From: a virus
IMG/VR virus record: IMGVR_UViG_3300044998_000514
Location: 1 to 37,960 of that record
DNA: 37,960 nucleotides
Strand: one strand, 5' to 3'
Position 1 is the first letter of the stretch, and every line of letters begins with the position of its first letter. Below the pieces are notes generated by a model. It was not told the DNA's origin and did not search any database. It saw only the letters and a program-made list of their open reading frames with translations. The position numbers and the translations under genes are program-made. Below are positions 22,378 to 37,234 of the stretch, piece by piece.

Positions 22378-22773
22378 ATGGCGACGACAAAACGGGGGGT
22401 TTCTGCTCCCATAGCCAACGTAATCAATCAGGGTGTCCTTCAGACGCTCAGCCAGAACATGAAAGAGTGCGTGAAGCTCACGCCCGGCGGACAGATCTAT
22501 CGCCGCCTGTCGCGTGGGCTGCACATCGTCTATGCACGCATCGATGGCCGCTGCCGGTTGGCGTTGGGCCGTGAGGCGCCCAGTGAACCTAGCCAGCAAG
22601 AGGTTGACATCCTCATGCGGGCCTTTGGCGTGCCGGCAGGGTCCGAACCAGAACGGCGCCAGGCTGCCTGGCGTGAACCTGTCACAGAGCGCACAGTTAC
22701 ATTCAATGTGATCGAACTGCGCTGGCGAGAAATGGGGCGCAGCGATGGCGAAGAAGAAACTGACGCGGCGTGA
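22378..22773 (+). CDS. Unknown early protein
   Basis: This 131-residue protein starts at the ATG after GAGAGGTTCAG. It is basic at the start (ATTKRGVSAPIANVINQGVLQTLSQ), has a strand-rich middle (YRRLSRGLHIVYARIDGRCRLALGREAP) and an Arg/Glu-rich end. No catalytic or DNA-binding motif was recognised. The central YARIDGRCRLALGR pattern hints at a small beta domain that binds nucleic acid or protein. It overlaps the next gene by 29 bases, so the two are probably coupled. An overlapping frame at 22224-22574 is not credible. Confidence 0.7.
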   Translation: MATTKRGVSAPIANVINQGVLQTLSQNMKECVKLTPGGQIYRRLSRGLHIVYARIDGRCRLALGREAPSEPSQQEVDILMRAFGVPAGSEPERRQAAWREPVTERTVTFNVIELRWREMGRSDGEEETDAA

Positions 22774-22990
22774 GAGCGACATACTGGCGGCCATCCTCGA
22801 CGGTTGTACGACCGACAAAGAGCTGATGCAGCGGCTGGGTCTCTCACGCAGCACCGTAGCCAAGCATCTGGTGAATATCTATCGCAAAATGGGCGCCCGC
22901 AGCCGCACCGACATGGCGGTGCGGGCGATGCGAGAACGTAGAACGCAGAACGTAGAACAGGAGCAGACCGATGGAACCGACGAAAGATGA
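22745..22990 (+). CDS. LuxR-type helix-turn-helix protein
   Basis: This 81-residue protein consists mainly of a GerE/LuxR-like DNA-binding domain: KLTRRESDILAAILDGCTTDKELMQRLGLSRSTVAKHLVNIYRKMGARSRTDMAVRAM. The segment LSRSTVAKHLVNIYRKMGA is the typical recognition helix region of the family. There is no receiver or ligand domain, so it is a bare DNA-binding module that may control early or late transcription. It overlaps both neighbours by about 20-30 bases. Confidence 0.85.
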   Translation: MAKKKLTRRESDILAAILDGCTTDKELMQRLGLSRSTVAKHLVNIYRKMGARSRTDMAVRAMRERRTQNVEQEQTDGTDER

Positions 22991-23192: not shown

Positions 23193-23493
23193 GACTGACT
23201 GGGTTGTGGCCGCCGACAGCGTTGGCCACCCTCTACCAACCTATCTCAGTATGGCCGTACCGCTAGCGATCGCTGATTATCGGCAGCGGGGTGGGCCCTC
23301 CGATCTAGAGATAGAACTGGCCATTGCCGACTGGAAACGATTGATCTCCGCTGGCGACGGGGCGGAGTTGTTGTTCCGTGAGCCGGGCAAGACTAGAGAA
23401 TCGATTAACGTCCTGGTGAGATGCCTGGCGATGCTGGCCTTTACACCGGGCGGAATCGAGATTTTTGGGCAGCATTTTGAGGTGGAGCAATGA
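23185..23493 (+). CDS. Unknown early protein
   Basis: This 102-residue protein overlaps both neighbours by a few bases, as do most genes in this operon. It contains YLSMAVPLAIADYRQRGGPSDLEIELAIADWKRLISAGDGAELLFREPGKTRESINVLVRCLAMLAFTPGG, a mostly helical pattern with an acidic centre. No known motif was recognised. Its neighbours are small DNA-binding proteins, so it may be a partner or regulator, but this is only context. Confidence 0.7.
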   Translation: MSRTDWVVAADSVGHPLPTYLSMAVPLAIADYRQRGGPSDLEIELAIADWKRLISAGDGAELLFREPGKTRESINVLVRCLAMLAFTPGGIEIFGQHFEVEQ

Positions 23494-23723
23494 CCGAGCC
23501 ACGGCAAGAGCCAGAGATCGAAATCATCGGCGATGAGAGCGAGCCATCCTATGCGATGGAGCTGCCCGCCCTGCGCACGCCTGGCTTCGCCGAGCTATTT
23601 GGTCCGGCCTACGCTACTTCCGAGGAGTGGATCCGCTTAGCGTGGGCAGCTTGGCGCTGTAGATACCGCACGAGTGGCACAGGATCTAAGCGCGCAGTGG
23701 CTGCGGGAGGAATCGACCCATGA
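23490..23723 (+). pseudogene. Truncated copy of a recombinase start fused out of frame to another gene's end
   Basis: The first 50 or so residues (EPRQEPEIEIIGDESEPSYAMELPALRTPGF and on to SEEWIRLAW) closely match the N-terminus of the tyrosine recombinase at 25225. The last 65 bases (about 23655-23720) match the end of the gene at 22971-23192 in a different frame: there they encode DTARVAQDLSAQWLREES, against DTGQVAQDLREQWLREEG in the parent. The open frame therefore ends in nonsense-like RYRTSGTGSKRAVAAGGIDP. The best explanation is a duplication followed by a deletion junction. It may still be translated (77 residues, overlapping start and stop). Confidence 0.8.
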
Positions 23724-25228
23724 CCGGCAATGATCATACCGATTTAGCAATTACTGCAATCCGCACGGACGGTGGAACCCAGATGCGGGCCGGGCTGAAC
23801 AAAGAGACGGTCGAGGAGTACGCAGATTTCATCTATCAACAGGACCACACCGTCAAATGGCCCTTTCCGCCCGTCGAAGTTTATTACGACGGGGAGAGCT
23901 ATTGGCTAGCAGATGGCTTCCACCGGCTGGCCGCGCTACGCAAAGTGATGCGCTGGCCTGAAGACAACACGGATGTTGTCTTCGCGGTGCCGGCCATCGT
24001 CCATGCCGGCGATCGCCGCGCCGCCGTCCTCCACGCCGCCGGAGCGAACGCCGCTCACGGGTTGCGGCGCTCCAACGCAGACAAGCGCCGGGCGGTCGAA
24101 ACGTTGCTGCGTGATGAGGAGTGGGGCCAGTGGAGCGACCGGGAGATCGCCCGGCGGTGCCATGTGAGTGCCCCGCTGGTTGCGCAAGTGCGCAGCGAGA
24201 TCCATACTGTAAATTCTTACAGTATGGACGGCAATACACCCACCGAGAGAACATTTGTTCACCCGAAGAGCGGCCAACCAACAACCATGAACGTGTCCGG
24301 CCAGCGCCAGGCCGCCAACGCACAGAGAAAATTTGATCCGCCCGCTCCAACGCTGACCGCGGATCAAATCGTCCTCGGCCGCCTGGTGCGCGCCGGCTGG
24401 GGATTTCTGAAGAGCGCAGCGGATGGGCAGCATTATGCGTTCCCACCCGGGAAATCGGGCCGAATAGGTCCATTCGCCACCGGCGATGAGGCCATTGCTG
24501 CCGCTCAGAGCTATATGCCTGCCCCGGAAGCCGGAGACCTGGCCGTAGGGGAGCTACACGCGCACGAACGGCAGTCGGAAAGGCCACCTCGAAAGGATGC
24601 CAGAGTACGCAATATCGACATTGACAGAGATGTTCCCGGCGCCAGAGAATACGGCTGCCGAATACGGGAAATGGATTGGGGGAATGGGGAAATCACATAC
24701 AATGTGGAGTTTCCGCTGAGCCGCGGTATGTCCTCGTGCGCGATCGAACACTTTACCACTCGCGCCGAGGCGGTGGAATGGGTGCGACAGAAGCTGGAAA
24801 CGGCGATAGAGAGAGAGGCCGGGGTGTACGACTACGGTAAAGGCGACGATGACCCGCCCCCGCCCACGCTGCCCGCCGACTTGATGGCGCAGGGCTGCAA
24901 GCTGACCGTGCGAGACGGCTGGTTTTTCGTCGAGTTTGCTCGACATGCCAGTACGTGCGATAGCCTAGAGCAGGCCGTGGCCTTGTGCCGGCGCTGGACT
25001 GGCACGACTGAGCCGACAGCCAGCGCCGGGGCCGGTTGCGAGGCGCACCAGAAGCGGCAGGCCAGCATCCGCACCGAACTGGAATTCTGGCGGGAGGCGT
25101 ATCGGCGCAGCTACCGGGTGGGCGAACTCACCGGCCAGTGGACGGGCGCAGCCAGCGCACTCAGCCGGTCCATTGAAGAGGTGATGCGGCTATATGGGAA
25201 GGAATTGGACGTGGAGCGCAGCAAATGA
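23720..25228 (+). CDS. ParB-like protein with large C-terminal extension
   Basis: This 502-residue protein starts with a ParB/Srx-type domain. Residues 15-115 contain RAGLNKETVEEYADFIYQQ, then YWLADGFHRLAALR with the key GFHR (Gly66-Arg69), and a helix-turn-helix segment WSDREIARRCHVSAPLVAQV (residues 138-157). The remaining 340 residues look like several small domains, with SMDGNTPTERTFVHPKSGQP in between and a helical C-terminus. Phage ParB-like proteins act as partition factors, transcription regulators or nucleases. No ParA is present. It overlaps the recombinase start by four bases and lies between that gene and its truncated copy. Confidence 0.85.
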   Translation: MTGNDHTDLAITAIRTDGGTQMRAGLNKETVEEYADFIYQQDHTVKWPFPPVEVYYDGESYWLADGFHRLAALRKVMRWPEDNTDVVFAVPAIVHAGDRRAAVLHAAGANAAHGLRRSNADKRRAVETLLRDEEWGQWSDREIARRCHVSAPLVAQVRSEIHTVNSYSMDGNTPTERTFVHPKSGQPTTMNVSGQRQAANAQRKFDPPAPTLTADQIVLGRLVRAGWGFLKSAADGQHYAFPPGKSGRIGPFATGDEAIAAAQSYMPAPEAGDLAVGELHAHERQSERPPRKDARVRNIDIDRDVPGAREYGCRIREMDWGNGEITYNVEFPLSRGMSSCAIEHFTTRAEAVEWVRQKLETAIEREAGVYDYGKGDDDPPPPTLPADLMAQGCKLTVRDGWFFVEFARHASTCDSLEQAVALCRRWTGTTEPTASAGAGCEAHQKRQASIRTELEFWREAYRRSYRVGELTGQWTGAASALSRSIEEVMRLYGKELDVERSK

Positions 25229-26430
25229 TTGAGCCACGGCAAAAGACAGAAGTTGAAATCATCGGCGATGAGAGCGAACCATCCTACTCGATGGAGCTGC
25301 CCGCCCTGCGCACGCCAGGCTTCATCGAACTGTTCGGCGCTGCCTATGCCGGCTCAGAGGAGTGGATGCGCTCGGCGTGGATTGTGGGCCGCGACGCCTG
25401 GCTGCGCATGAAGGAGGGAAAGAGCGGCAGCCGCCACACGCGGCGCAGCTATGAGCAGGCCAGCGCCCAGTGGCTCACTTTCCTTGCCGACCTGCGCCAT
25501 GAGGACGGGCGCCCGGTGCGGCTGTGGGAAGCCACCACCGAGCACGTGCGCATGTGGCAGGACCATCTGGCCGGCTCTGGGCTGGCGGCTAGCACGGTCA
25601 ACCAGCGGCTGGCAGCGTGCTCTAGCTGGTACACCTTTATGGAGCATGAGCGCATCCTGGTCCGGGGCATCGAGATCAGCGCATTTATGGACCGGGCCGG
25701 TCGCTTTCGCGCCAACCCGTTCGCTGCTGGCAACGTGCAGCGCCAGCGCGTCGAACAGTACGGCCACGCCCGCATCCTCACGTCCGAAGAGAGCCAGCGG
25801 CTGATCAACCATCTACAAGAGCGCAGCCATCTGCTGCTGGGCGCCCGCAACTATGCGCTGATCCTCGCCTACCTGTTGACCGGCTATCGCAATGCCGAGG
25901 TGGTGAGCCTGCGCTGGGGGGCAATCCGGCCCAACCGCAACCAGCCGGGCGCCTGGGTAGTGGAATGGCGGGGCAAGGGGGCCAAACGTCAGTCGGACCC
26001 GCTGCCCAACCGGGTCTACTACGCCATCGTCCACTATCTGAAGACCAGCGGTCGCCATCCTGACACGATGAAGCCGGATGATCATATCTTCATCCCACAC
26101 GTGACCCACGGGGTGAGTAACCTGGTCAACCAGGAGGAGTCCGACGAAGCCGAACCCGGCGACCGGCATATCAGCAGCAAGCAGGCGCAGACGATCCTCC
26201 AGACCGCGCTGCGCAAGGCCGGCGTCGAGCGACCGGAAGAGATCAGGGTGCATGACCTGCGTCACACTTTTGCGCACCAGTATCGCCGGCGTAATGCAGA
26301 TCTAGAGAGCCTGCGCGCCAGGCTGCACCATGAGAGCCTGGCCACCACGGGTATCTACGCTCGCGAGGTCCTGGACGATCCGGTCGATGACTATTCAGAA
26401 GGATTGTTCCAGGGGCTGTTGGGGCTGTGA
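25225..26430 (+). CDS. Second tyrosine recombinase (Xer-like)
   Basis: This 401-residue protein has an N-terminal extension, a SAM-like domain (residues about 65-160) and a full catalytic set: Arg222 (TGYRNAEV), Lys251 (RGKGAKRQ), His343 and Arg346 (HDLRHT), His369 (LHHES) and Tyr378 (TGIYAR). It is unlike the integrase at 19478 in length and N-terminus. It sits in the early operon next to a ParB-like gene. It could resolve multimers of a circular prophage, excise, or invert DNA. No clear crossover site was spotted beside it. Confidence 0.93.
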   Translation: MIEPRQKTEVEIIGDESEPSYSMELPALRTPGFIELFGAAYAGSEEWMRSAWIVGRDAWLRMKEGKSGSRHTRRSYEQASAQWLTFLADLRHEDGRPVRLWEATTEHVRMWQDHLAGSGLAASTVNQRLAACSSWYTFMEHERILVRGIEISAFMDRAGRFRANPFAAGNVQRQRVEQYGHARILTSEESQRLINHLQERSHLLLGARNYALILAYLLTGYRNAEVVSLRWGAIRPNRNQPGAWVVEWRGKGAKRQSDPLPNRVYYAIVHYLKTSGRHPDTMKPDDHIFIPHVTHGVSNLVNQEESDEAEPGDRHISSKQAQTILQTALRKAGVERPEEIRVHDLRHTFAHQYRRRNADLESLRARLHHESLATTGIYAREVLDDPVDDYSEGLFQGLLGL

Positions 26431-34718: not shown

Positions 34719-34966
34719 ATCCAGTAGACGAGACAGCACAGATGTGCTAAAGTGCTCATGGACGCATTGACGACACGAGGGAGCCAGTCCGCTCTCTCGT
34801 GTCTTTTTTCACAGTTCGGACAATTGTTCTATTTTTGCATGATTTGTCGAGTATGAGCGATATATACTTGTAAGAGCCATTGGTGACAACGGGTCTAGCT
34901 TTGCTCCCCTGGTGCGGGCCGGGGGAAGCCTGCACGCACCAGGGGCCATTTGAGAGGTTGGCAGCA
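34719..34966. other. Non-coding gap with terminator, palindrome and hairpin
   Basis: No credible gene is present in these 248 bases. They hold the terminator at 34772-34809, the palindrome ACAATTGTTC at 34820-34829, an AT-rich stretch to about 34870, and an 11-bp inverted repeat CCCCTGGTGCG (34906-34916) with CGCACCAGGGG (34935-34945). The AT-rich part may hold a promoter for the next genes, though no consensus pair is convincing. Confidence 0.7.
34772..34809 (+). terminator. Rho-independent terminator
   Basis: GACACGAGGGAG (34772-34783) pairs with CTCTCTCGTGTC (34792-34803) with a single G-T wobble and an 8-base loop, followed by six T residues. It ends the membrane-protein operon about 50 bases after its last stop codon. 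Confidence 0.92.
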
Positions 34967-35227
34967 GTGTCGAGGTTGAACATTCTCCTGGTTGCCCCTG
35001 ATCATCCTGATTTGCCCAGCGTGGCCGCTGAGGTGGCTGCCATCCGCCAGCATCACGACGTGATCGCACTAGTGGGTCCAGTGCGCGATGCCGATATTGC
35101 GCGGGCGGTGCAGAATGGCCCCTACGACGTGATCTGGTTTGCCACGCATGGCAACGAGCGAGGGGTGCAATTGAGTGACGGTCTGCGATGTTCTGCGCGA
35201 CATTCAGGATCGGCTCATACGCATTGA
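34967..35227 (+). CDS. CHAT-like fragment (caspase-like protease N-terminal part)
   Basis: I prefer the GTG at 34967, preceded by TGAGAGG, giving 86 residues; the upstream frame from 34880 lies over a hairpin. The sequence NILLVAPDHPDLPSVAAEVAAIRQ and DVIALVGPVRDADIARAVQN, then YDVIWFATHGNERGVQLSDG, closely follows the first half of CHAT-type caspase-like domains, including the catalytic His in ATHG. The second half with the catalytic Cys is missing. After SDG the frame reads implausible residues. So it is either a stand-alone fragment or one part of a broken gene. The similarity is by eye. Confidence 0.6.
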   Translation: MSRLNILLVAPDHPDLPSVAAEVAAIRQHHDVIALVGPVRDADIARAVQNGPYDVIWFATHGNERGVQLSDGLRCSARHSGSAHTH

Positions 35228-35381: not shown

Positions 35382-35573
35382 ATGGCGTGGCGAGAGGTGC
35401 GGCGGCGGCACAAGCTCATCTTCCGTTTTGACCCAGATCTCGATCTGATCGAGATCGTGATCAGGGGCAAGCGTGATGTCATACAGTTAAACGATTATCG
35501 TTTGCCCAACCAGCGCCCAGTCGAACAAATGTGCGAGGTGCAAACCGACCATGAAGGTATTCCCCAGTCTTGA
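35382..35573 (+). CDS. Small unknown protein
   Basis: This 63-residue protein starts ten bases after the previous stop with GAGGTGCGGC upstream. It has basic residues in the first third (WREVRRRHKLIFRF), then strand-like DPDLDLIEIVIRGKRDVIQLNDYRLP and a short polar end. The charged, compact sequence suggests a small beta fold such as a nucleic-acid-binding barrel. A promoter begins within the last codons and drives the next unit. Confidence 0.65.
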   Translation: MAWREVRRRHKLIFRFDPDLDLIEIVIRGKRDVIQLNDYRLPNQRPVEQMCEVQTDHEGIPQS

Positions 35574-35599
35574 CATAATTAGATCATCCGTGCTACGAT
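35570..35599 (+). promoter_or_regulatory. Promoter of the CRISPR-tRNA unit
   Basis: TTGACA (35570-35575) and TACGAT (35594-35599) are separated by 18 bases, a close match to vegetative promoters. It lies 49 bases before the ATG at 35648 and points towards the small ORF, the CRISPR array, the tRNA and the structured RNA. No terminator was found until 36574, so one transcript could cover all of them. Confidence 0.78.
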
Positions 35600-35647
35600 T
35601 GTATCGACGACGGCGCACACATTTCCGCTGCGGCCTGGTTCAGGACA

Positions 35648-35856
35648 TGAATAGCGAGCGACTGTTAAAGACGATGGCAACCGAACTACCGACCTTGATA
35701 CGCCAACTTCAATCATCCGATCCGAGCCTGCACAGCGCGGCTGTCCAGCGGCTGGGCGACTTCGCCGAGATGACCGAACGGTGGCGGGTTCGGCGCGTTG
35801 CCTGGCTACAAGCGAGTCCGACCTTCGTTGCCATGTCGGTCAAGCGGGATGACTGA
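35648..35856 (+). CDS. Small helical protein upstream of the CRISPR array
   Basis: The ATG at 35648 lies just after the promoter; a longer frame from 35551 would start upstream of it and is not preferred. The 69-residue protein reads SERLLKTMATELPTLIRQLQ, then DPSLHSAAVQRLGDFAEMTERWRVRRVAWLQASPTFVAMSVKRDD. It is mostly helical with a basic C-terminal half. It ends only four bases before the first CRISPR repeat. No Cas, anti-CRISPR or regulator family was recognised, but position alone makes a link to the array possible. Confidence 0.65.
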
Positions 35857-35860
35857 TGCG

Positions 35861-36188
35861 GTTGCACTCGACGACTCGACAGAGCGAGTACTGAAATCTT
35901 CGAGGACCATGGCCGGCCGGTCGGCGATGATGCGTTGCACTCGACGACTCGACAGAGCGAGTACTGAAATTCCATTCAGCAACAGGCGCCGGCTGCGCAG
36001 AGCCTGGGTTGCACTCGACGACTCGACAGAGCGAGTACTGAAATTACTACCCTACTTCGCATAGGAACGAATCTACCAGGTTGCACTCGACGACTCGACA
36101 GAGCGAGTACTGAAATTACTACCCTACTTCGCATAGGAACGAATCTACCAGGTTGCACTCGACGACTCGACAGAGCGAGTACTGAAAT
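35861..36188 (+). CRISPR. Phage-encoded CRISPR mini-array, five repeats and four spacers
   Basis: Five identical 37-base repeats lie at 35861-35897, 35934-35970, 36008-36044, 36080-36116 and 36152-36188. Each begins GTTGCACTCGAC and ends CGAGTACTGAAAT, with a 5-bp stem ACTCG/CGAGT (repeat positions 14-18 and 25-29) around a 6-base loop. Spacers are 36, 37, 35 and 35 bases; the last two are identical. The GTTGCA start and TGAAAT end resemble 36-37-base repeats of type III or I-D loci in filamentous bacteria. No cas gene is in the window, so host Cas proteins would be needed. Orientation is inferred as plus strand from these ends and the promoter. Confidence 0.95.
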
Positions 36189-36190
36189 AC

Positions 36191-36267
36191 TGCGGGATGG
36201 CCTAGTGGACTAAGGCGTCTGGCTCATAACCAGAAAATCGACGGTTCGAATCCGTCTCCCGCGACCA
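36191..36267 (+). tRNA. tRNA with anticodon CAT (Met or Ile2 type)
   Basis: The cloverleaf is complete. The acceptor stem TGCGGGA/TCCCGCG has a T-G wobble at 1-72. The D arm has stem GCC/GGC, the anticodon stem is TCTGG/CCAGA around loop CTCATAA, the T arm is GACGG-TTCGAAT-CCGTC, the discriminator is A and the CCA end is encoded. The anticodon CAT fits tRNA-Met or, if the host modifies the first base, tRNA-Ile for ATA. It starts only two bases after the last CRISPR repeat, so its 5' processing would also trim the array transcript. Confidence 0.93.
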
Positions 36268-36573
36268 TGCCAACCATTTAAACGACTGATGTTGGGTAGC
36301 TTCGGCTAGGCCAACATCCCTATCGTAAGAGGGTCTTACGGCGGGTCCACAAAACCGGCAGTGGGGCGGCCTGGTCAGCCAGAGGGTGGGCCGTAAGTGC
36401 GGGTCGGTTAGTGCGGACGGCTCAGCGGCGGACAAATCCTACAGGCATCAAGCCCTGTACATCCAGGAAGGTACAGGGCCAAAGGGAGAGCGCAAACAGT
36501 CCCCAGCCGGGATGACAAGCTAGGCCCGGCACCCAACCGAAGAGCGGCGGCCCACTAGGCCGTGAGAGCGCCC
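36268..36573 (+). ncRNA. Putative structured non-coding RNA
   Basis: No credible gene fills this stretch, yet it is dense with stable hairpins. GATGTTGG/CCAACATC (36288-36295 with 36311-36318) has an inner TAGC-TTCG-GCTA tetraloop stem. Others are CGTAAGA/TCTTACG (36324-36340), GCCCTGTAC/GTACAGGGC (36452-36479), GCCGGG/CCCGGC (36506-36530) and CGGCC/GGCCG (36548-36562). It lies between a tRNA and a strong terminator in the same direction. Large phage RNAs of other types (GOLLD, ROOL) are also found near tRNAs, but this one is shorter and was not matched to a known class. It lacks an anti-repeat to the CRISPR repeat. Confidence 0.6.
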
Positions 36574-36619
36574 AGAGCGCCATATTCTCCAACTGGAGAT
36601 TGTGGCGCTCTTTTCTTTT
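36574..36619 (+). terminator. Strong rho-independent terminator
   Basis: AGAGCGCCA (36574-36582) pairs exactly with TGGCGCTCT (36603-36611), and an inner CTCC/GGAG stem lies in the loop. TTTCTTTT follows. It closes the CRISPR, tRNA and structured RNA unit and sits just before the next gene. Confidence 0.93.
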
Positions 36620-36628
36620 GGTGATGCG

Positions 36629-37234
36629 ATGGACGACTTAAGACGGGTCACGCTACGCCTGTCGAGGGCCTTGCGCAAGGCATTTGAGGCGCACGAGGAA
36701 ATCTTCCTGCGCTCCCTCGTTACACGCCACCATGCGCCCCCCGCAGGCGCATGGTGGCGCCAGCCACGCCAACAGACTGGCAAGGATTTGCCTGCCGATT
36801 TGCGCATCGCCGTGAGCCGGACCACAGCAGAGACGGCTGTTCTTTTTCTCGGAGCTATCCATCAGGCTATGCAACAGGCCATGCGCATCGGGGGCAAGGC
36901 CACAATCTCCTCCATTGATCTACCGCTGACCTTCACCCTTGCCCATCCGCAGGCGGTCCAGTATTTGGAACGATGTCCTTACGAGATGCTAGAGCAGATC
37001 AATTTGACCGTGTATGAATCGATTGTCAGGTTGAGGAAGCGGAGCTCTGCGCATATCGAGCGGGATCTCCGCGGTTTCTATCGGGACATGGCGCTGAACC
37101 GGTCTCGCCACATTGCCGCCACCATCGTAGCAGATGCCTATCAGGCCGGGTCTGCCATCGTGATCGGTGATCTGCAAGATGCAGGGATCAGAGTGGCGCA
37201 ATGTTCTGGCTTGGCTTTCTCGCTGGATTCGTGA
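36629..37234 (+). CDS. Unknown protein, possibly MuF-like
   Basis: I chose the ATG at 36629 because an upstream GTG at 36602 lies inside the terminator. The 201-residue protein is helical and basic (DDLRRVTLRLSRALRKAFEAHEEIFLRSLV at the start). Near the end it reads RDLRGFYRDMALNRSRHIAATIVADAYQAGSAIVIGDLQDAG. That last part has the helix pattern that precedes the C-terminal domain of MuF-like head morphogenesis proteins (R-x-x-I-A-x-T plus A-Y), but the metal-binding end is missing. It may be a truncated relative of the portal fusion partner. The start lacks a strong ribosome binding site. Confidence 0.65.
   Translation: MDDLRRVTLRLSRALRKAFEAHEEIFLRSLVTRHHAPPAGAWWRQPRQQTGKDLPADLRIAVSRTTAETAVLFLGAIHQAMQQAMRIGGKATISSIDLPLTFTLAHPQAVQYLERCPYEMLEQINLTVYESIVRLRKRSSAHIERDLRGFYRDMALNRSRHIAATIVADAYQAGSAIVIGDLQDAGIRVAQCSGLAFSLDS

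What the first reader, a model, noticed from the sequence alone, without database searches (positions are those of the whole stretch)
35861..36188. Cas-less CRISPR mini-array carried by a phage
Five perfect 37-base repeats with four spacers of 35-37 bases lie in a phage genome without any recognisable cas gene. Phage and archaeal virus mini-arrays are known and can use host Cas proteins against competing viruses. Such an array in what may be a Chloroflexota-type phage, with tRNA and a structured RNA in the same unit, looks unusual.
Basis: partly seen in the sequence, partly recalled or inferred. Interest (0 to 1): 0.92.

Follow-up and report, generated by a model that had tools for sequence, protein, structure and literature searches.

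The report
Cas-less CRISPR array in a phage
A small temperate phage, probably of an uncultured Chloroflexota bacterium, carries a real five-repeat CRISPR array with no Cas genes, tucked directly in front of a tRNA gene; it most likely borrows the host's Cas proteins, which is a known kind of phage trick, but neither its host nor its targets could be found.

Summary
Five perfect 37-nt repeats (35861-36188) alternate with spacers of 36, 37, 35 and 35 nt; spacers 3 and 4 are identical, so there are three distinct guides. The record is a 37,960-bp IMG/VR virus, an HK97-type temperate phage with no detectable cas gene. The array fills the gap between an ORF stop (4 nt before) and a tRNA-CAT gene (2 nt after), followed by a folded non-coding RNA and a terminator. 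It has no recognisable leader. The repeat is a genuine CRISPR repeat: a hairpin plus the 8-nt tag ACUGAAAU. Chloroflexota arrays share its length, end sequences and hairpin position, with compensatory stem changes; such host arrays lie beside Cas6 with type I-B (plus III-B) or I-A genes. Overall identity to any host repeat seen is only 16-23/37, no host with a near-identical repeat was found, and no spacer has a convincing target. Best explanation: guide RNAs cut by host Cas6 and used with host effectors against competing elements (inferred, not shown). A decoy (RNA anti-CRISPR-like) and an idle relic remain possible. New member of a known kind; the tRNA junction is the only odd detail.

The parts
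35861..35897 (+). CRISPR repeat 1 (37 nt)
35898..35933 (+). spacer 1 (36 nt)
   Evidence: no convincing target
35934..35970 (+). CRISPR repeat 2
35971..36007 (+). spacer 2 (37 nt)
   Evidence: no convincing target
36008..36044 (+). CRISPR repeat 3
36045..36079 (+). spacer 3 (35 nt)
   Evidence: no convincing target
36080..36116 (+). CRISPR repeat 4
36117..36151 (+). spacer 4, identical to spacer 3 (duplicated repeat-spacer unit)
36152..36188 (+). CRISPR repeat 5, last; its end is 2 nt before the tRNA
36191..36267 (+). tRNA gene, CAT anticodon (Met, or Ile2 if modified), CCA encoded
36268..36618 (+). non-coding, strongly folding RNA; no Rfam family
   Evidence: (z -3.75)
36574..36618 (+). terminator-like hairpin followed by T-rich tail, at the end of the unit
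   Evidence: searches (inverted repeat I2; fold), sequence
35551..35856 (+). upstream ORF (101 aa as listed), stop codon 4 nt before repeat 1; no family
35570..35599 (+). possible sigma-70-like promoter (TTGACA-18-TACGAT); not above chance in the scan

Best explanation
A Cas-less phage CRISPR array that supplies guide RNAs to the host's Cas machinery. Steps: (1) the array is transcribed in a short unit that also holds the tRNA and the folded RNA and ends at the terminator (inferred from the layout); (2) host Cas6 binds the hairpin next to the 3' end of each repeat and cuts at its base, leaving the 8-nt tag ACUGAAAU on the 5' end of each guide (inferred from the repeat's shape, which matches Chloroflexota repeats lying beside Cas6 genes); (3) RNase P trims the 10 nt left in front of the tRNA, so the tRNA also ends the array transcript (inferred); (4) the guides load on a host type I effector (I-B or I-A like, possibly III-B) and act on DNA of competing phages or plasmids, excluding them from the lysogen or infected cell (inferred by analogy; no target found). 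With no leader and no cas1-cas2 of its own, the array was more likely picked up by recombination than built by adaptation in place; spacer 4 arose by duplication.
For: Array confirmed. No Cas in 56 phage ORFs. Repeat hairpin ACTCG-ACAGAG-CGAGT ends exactly at position 29, before ACTGAAAT; a stem of 5 or more pairs ending there arises in 133 of 20,000 shuffles. Chloroflexota repeats with ACTGAAA share 37-nt length, GTTGCA start and a 4-bp hairpin, mostly with a 6-nt loop, ending at the same position, with stems ATCC/GGAT, ACCC/GGGT, GTCC/GGAC, TTCC/GGAA; G676 and G656 repeats match the phage at all 15 terminal positions GTTGCAC...ACTGAAAT. Spacer spacing is the same, 72-76 nt. Those host arrays lie near Cas1, Cas6, Cas3, Cas5b, Cas7b, Cas8b plus Cmr/Cas10 genes (L186/L187) or Cas3-Cas8a-Cas7-Cas5a-Cas6 (L155). 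Chloroflexota host supported. Mechanism precedents: PMC6858448, PMC7162821, PMC10848311.
Against: No host with a near-identical repeat; the 22 inner positions match host repeats only at chance level (4-8), whereas described viral mini-arrays have repeats identical to the host's (PMC11656645). No protospacer found. In the folded array transcript the hairpin is favoured in only one of five repeats. No expression data.
Confidence: 0.58

Rival explanations
1. RNA anti-CRISPR-like decoy: the repeats occupy host Cas6 and Cas7 and form useless complexes, protecting the phage from host immunity; spacers are incidental.
For: No spacer has a target. Phages use repeat mimics this way (PMC10651486). Leaderless, Cas-less layout, downstream of a possible promoter.
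Against: Described Racrs are solitary repeats with high identity to host repeats (PMC10651486); here there are five repeats with spacers of host-like length, and no host repeat matches closely. Three distinct spacers plus one duplicated are not needed for a decoy.
Confidence: 0.17
2. Idle relic: a fragment of a host array caught by recombination, not processed or used.
For: None of 14 full or partial relatives examined across most of their genomes, nor any other TerL relative in the stretch held, has the array or tRNA. No leader, no targets, divergent repeat.
Against: All five repeats are perfect, with no decay. The array fits between a stop codon and a tRNA with 4 and 2 nt to spare.
Confidence: 0.2
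3. Assembly artefact: array reads of a host joined into the phage contig, or a wrong copy number of the duplicated unit.
For: The record is a metagenomic contig; no second copy of the locus in IMG/VR. The duplicated unit is longer than a short read may span.
Against: The array is embedded in the phage sequence between an ORF and a tRNA, not at a contig end.
Confidence: 0.05

Closest known systems
Cas-less CRISPR arrays of huge phages (Al-Shayeb et al. 2020, PMC7162821)
   Same: Compact array (theirs: median six repeats), no own interference or adaptation genes, proposed use of host Cas proteins.
   Different: A 38-kb temperate phage instead of a >200-kb genome; no host with a similar repeat found; targets unknown.
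Viral mini-CRISPR arrays (Medvedeva et al. 2019, PMC6858448; reviewed in PMC11656645)
   Same: Array without cas genes in a virus; the proposed role is exclusion of related viruses.
   Different: Four spacers instead of one or two; no leader; repeat not shown to equal a host repeat; no spacer matches a related virus.
Bathyarchaeia Chiyouvirus arrays (PMC10848311)
   Same: Two virus arrays of four repeats and three spacers each; for array 2 no target was found.
   Different: Chiyouvirus array 1 has the host's exact repeat and self-targeting spacers; the virus also encodes Cas2.
RNA anti-CRISPRs, Racrs (PMC10651486)
   Same: Phage-encoded CRISPR repeat without cas genes.
   Different: Racrs are solitary repeats; here there are five repeats with spacers.
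Chloroflexota CRISPR arrays with ACTGAAA repeats (G656, G676, G231, G037)
   Same: 37-nt repeats, GTTGCA start, small hairpin ending at position 29, ACTGAAA tag, 72-76 nt spacing.
   Different: Cellular arrays with cas operons nearby; inner sequence and stem differ.

Membership tests
CRISPR array | Three or more near-identical direct repeats of 23-50 nt separated by unique spacers of similar length | tested here: met
   Five perfect 37-nt repeats, spacers 35-37 nt, three distinct and one duplicate
CRISPR array | Repeat shows a Cas6-type hairpin followed by an 8-nt 5' tag, as in related arrays | tested here: met
   5-bp stem, 6-nt loop, ACTGAAAT; same position in Chloroflexota repeats with compensatory stems
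Virus-borne Cas-less (mini-)array | Located in a virus genome | tested here: met
   Virus record with phage head, tail, packaging and integrase genes
Virus-borne Cas-less (mini-)array | No cas genes in the virus | tested here: met
   56 ORFs against PADLOC-DB; only helix-turn-helix parts matched
Virus-borne Cas-less (mini-)array | Repeat identical or close to a host repeat | tested here: inconclusive
   Not found in collections searched; shared ends and hairpin only; the true host may be unsequenced
Virus-borne Cas-less (mini-)array | Spacers match related viruses or other mobile elements | tested here: inconclusive
   No match; large-collection tests were exact matches only
Strict mini-array as defined in PMC6858448 | Only one or two spacers, preceded by a leader | tested here: not met
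   Four spacers; ORF ends 4 nt upstream, no AT-rich leader
Racr (RNA anti-CRISPR) | Solitary repeat unit | tested here: not met
   Five repeats with spacers
Racr (RNA anti-CRISPR) | Inhibits host CRISPR interference | not testable with these tools
   needs an experiment
Type I-B or I-A guide source | Repeat processed by Cas6 of that subtype | not testable with these tools
   Only association of similar repeats with such operons

The most novel reading that the evidence does not exclude
The array and the tRNA form one processed RNA unit: Cas6 and RNase P share a precursor, the tRNA acting as the array's 3' end, so guide supply is tied to expression of the phage tRNA and folded RNA. The odd inner repeat sequence would be an adaptation of the phage to a particular Cas6, or to avoid recombination with the host's own array.
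Probability: 0.12. Interest if true: 0.6.

Novelty: new member of a known kind. Interest (0 to 1): 0.36.

Why it matters
It adds a small temperate phage, probably of an uncultured Chloroflexota host, to the viruses that carry CRISPR arrays without Cas genes. It gives a repeat that can be searched for to identify the host as more genomes appear. If the tRNA junction matters, it would be a natural case of guide RNAs and a tRNA cut from one precursor. If the spacers are later matched, they would name a rival phage or plasmid.

Tried and rejected
Exact repeat, repeat-spacer-repeat pattern and three spacer cores in IMG/VR: nothing. Repeat pattern with free loop in GTDB r220: nothing. Repeat with 3 mismatches in 400 Chloroflexota genomes and in 13 related viruses plus two host genomes: nothing. 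Spacers with 3 mismatches in 201 genomes of the order of CFX6: nothing. BLAST of spacers against phages and of the whole array against plasmids: only partial or weak hits with E of 0.1 or worse. Self-targeting: best window match has 12 mismatches, as for shuffles. Chloroflexota spacers against this phage: only a 17-nt match (25 of 40 at best), not convincing. tRNA as an integration site copy: best host match 86% over 51 nt, so not a copied attB. The protein next to the folded RNA has no relative in IMG/VR. One search used a pattern one base too long and is void; one search replaces it. A Csa3/CARF hit proved to be only a helix-turn-helix match.

Full report
WHAT IS THERE. The window is a whole IMG/VR virus record of 37,960 bases. 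Its first and last 11 bases are the same, as in a closed or terminally redundant genome. It encodes TerS, TerL, portal, S78 protease, HK97-type capsid, tape measure, tail fibre, tyrosine integrase, ParB-like protein, helicase and HNH, so it is a temperate tailed phage.

The array holds five identical 37-nt repeats at 35861-36188 with spacers of 36, 37, 35 and 35 nt. Spacers 3 and 4 are identical. The array starts 4 nt after the stop codon of a small ORF (35551-35856) and ends 2 nt before a tRNA with a CAT anticodon (36191-36267). A 351-nt non-coding stretch follows that folds better than shuffles (z -3.75) and ends in a strong hairpin and T-rich tail; it is not in Rfam. There is no AT-rich leader: the 240 nt upstream are 60% GC and mostly coding. 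A promoter-like site at 35570-35599 is no better than chance.

NO CAS GENES. Of 56 phage ORFs scanned against PADLOC-DB, none is a Cas protein. The only CRISPR-related hits, Csa3/CARF, cover just the helix-turn-helix part of an 81-aa regulator.

IS IT A REAL CRISPR REPEAT? Yes. The repeat contains ACTCG-ACAGAG-CGAGT, a 5-bp hairpin that ends exactly 8 nt before the repeat end, leaving ACTGAAAT, the form of a Cas6-made 5' tag (established knowledge of types I and III). Stems this long at this place occur in 133 of 20,000 shuffles. A pattern for arrays with GTTGCA...TGAAA repeats found 31 of 400 Chloroflexota genomes, and GTTGCA...ACTGAAA arrays occur in 8 of 301 genomes of the order of Chloroflexi bacterium CFX6. 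Nearly all ACTGAAA repeats have a 4-bp hairpin, mostly with a 6-nt loop, ending at the same position 29, and the stem changes by compensation: ATCC/GGAT, ACCC/GGGT, GTCC/GGAC, TTCC/GGAA, CTCC/GGAG; the phage has ACTCG/CGAGT. The repeats of G676 and G656 agree with the phage at all 15 end positions, and the 22 inner positions agree no better than chance.

WHICH CAS SYSTEM? Near the G656 and G676 arrays lie Cas1, Cas6, Cas3 and, in G656, Cas5b, Cas7b and Cas8b (type I-B), with Cmr6 in both and Cas10 in G676 (III-B). In G037 an ACTGAAAG array is near Cas3, Cas8a, Cas7/Csa2, Cas5a and Cas6 (type I-A like). The phage repeat could therefore feed a Cas6-dependent type I system. This is association, not proof.

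HOST. TerL relatives are mostly unnamed viral contigs at 51-70% identity; the closest prophages in named genomes are in Chloroflexi CFX6 (59%) and a groundwater Chloroflexi genome (57%). A spacer from a Chloroflexota array matches the related virus L034 over 26 of 27 nt, 28 of 35 in all. A Chloroflexota host is likely but not proved. None of the relatives has a comparable array, or a tRNA, in the stretches held.

TARGETS. None found: not in the phage itself or its relatives, not in IMG/VR as exact 23-25-mers, not in GenBank phages by BLAST beyond partial or weak hits, and not in 201 genomes of the CFX6 order with up to 3 mismatches. The large-collection tests were exact, so diverged targets could be missed.

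MECHANISM. I favour guide supply to host Cas proteins (0.58). Shown: the array, its intact repeats, the absence of cas genes, and a repeat form shared with Chloroflexota arrays near Cas6. Inferred: transcription, Cas6 cutting, RNase P trimming of the last 10 nt before the tRNA, loading on host effectors, and exclusion of competitors. A decoy (0.17) fits the lack of targets but not the multi-spacer form. A relic (0.2) fits the sporadic presence but not the perfect repeats. Artefact (0.05) is unlikely.

COMPARISON. Cas-less compact arrays in phages are known. Huge phages have a median of six repeats per array, and some lack interference genes and have host-like repeats (PMC7162821). In landfills 0.43% of viral elements carry arrays, with 8 spacers on average (PMC12607003). 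Archaeal virus mini-arrays exclude relatives (PMC6858448). Phage mini-arrays are said to lack leaders and to gain spacers by recombination (PMC6858448, discussion). The locus belongs with these in form. It misses the strict mini-array definition (one or two spacers plus leader) and the Racr definition (solitary repeat). A host-identical repeat and viral targets, seen in the best-studied cases, could not be shown here.

VERDICT. Real, moderately interesting, a new member of a known kind. The unusual points are the array's close fit against a tRNA and the inner repeat sequence unlike any host seen.

Noticed in passing
window 36268-36618: 351-nt folded non-coding RNA with terminator between the tRNA and the next ORF; not in Rfam and not found in related phages. 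It may be a new phage RNA.
   Followed up: partly
window 36602-37234: 210-aa ORF after the RNA with no Pfam or PHROGs family and no relative in IMG/VR.
   Followed up: partly
window 22745-22990: 81-aa regulator whose helix-turn-helix resembles that of Csa3/CARF regulators; no CARF domain.
   Followed up: yes
window 34880-35227: Short ORF with a weak CHAT (caspase-like) match, possibly a broken gene.
   Followed up: no
window 23720-25228 and 25225-26430: The N-terminus of the integrase ORF (25225) closely resembles the short ORF at 23490-23723, so a duplication appears to flank the ParB-like gene.
   Followed up: no
L196/L198 (IMGVR_UViG_3300012199_000042) and L197 (IMGVR_UViG_3300006028_000004): Other IMG/VR contigs carrying arrays of the same ACTGAAA repeat class (stem ACCC/GGGT); whether these are phages or host fragments was not checked.
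   Followed up: partly
L187 1153-11342 (G656): Chloroflexota type I-B operon with Csx15, a CARF-PDDEXK protein and a Cmr module sharing the arrays.
   Followed up: partly
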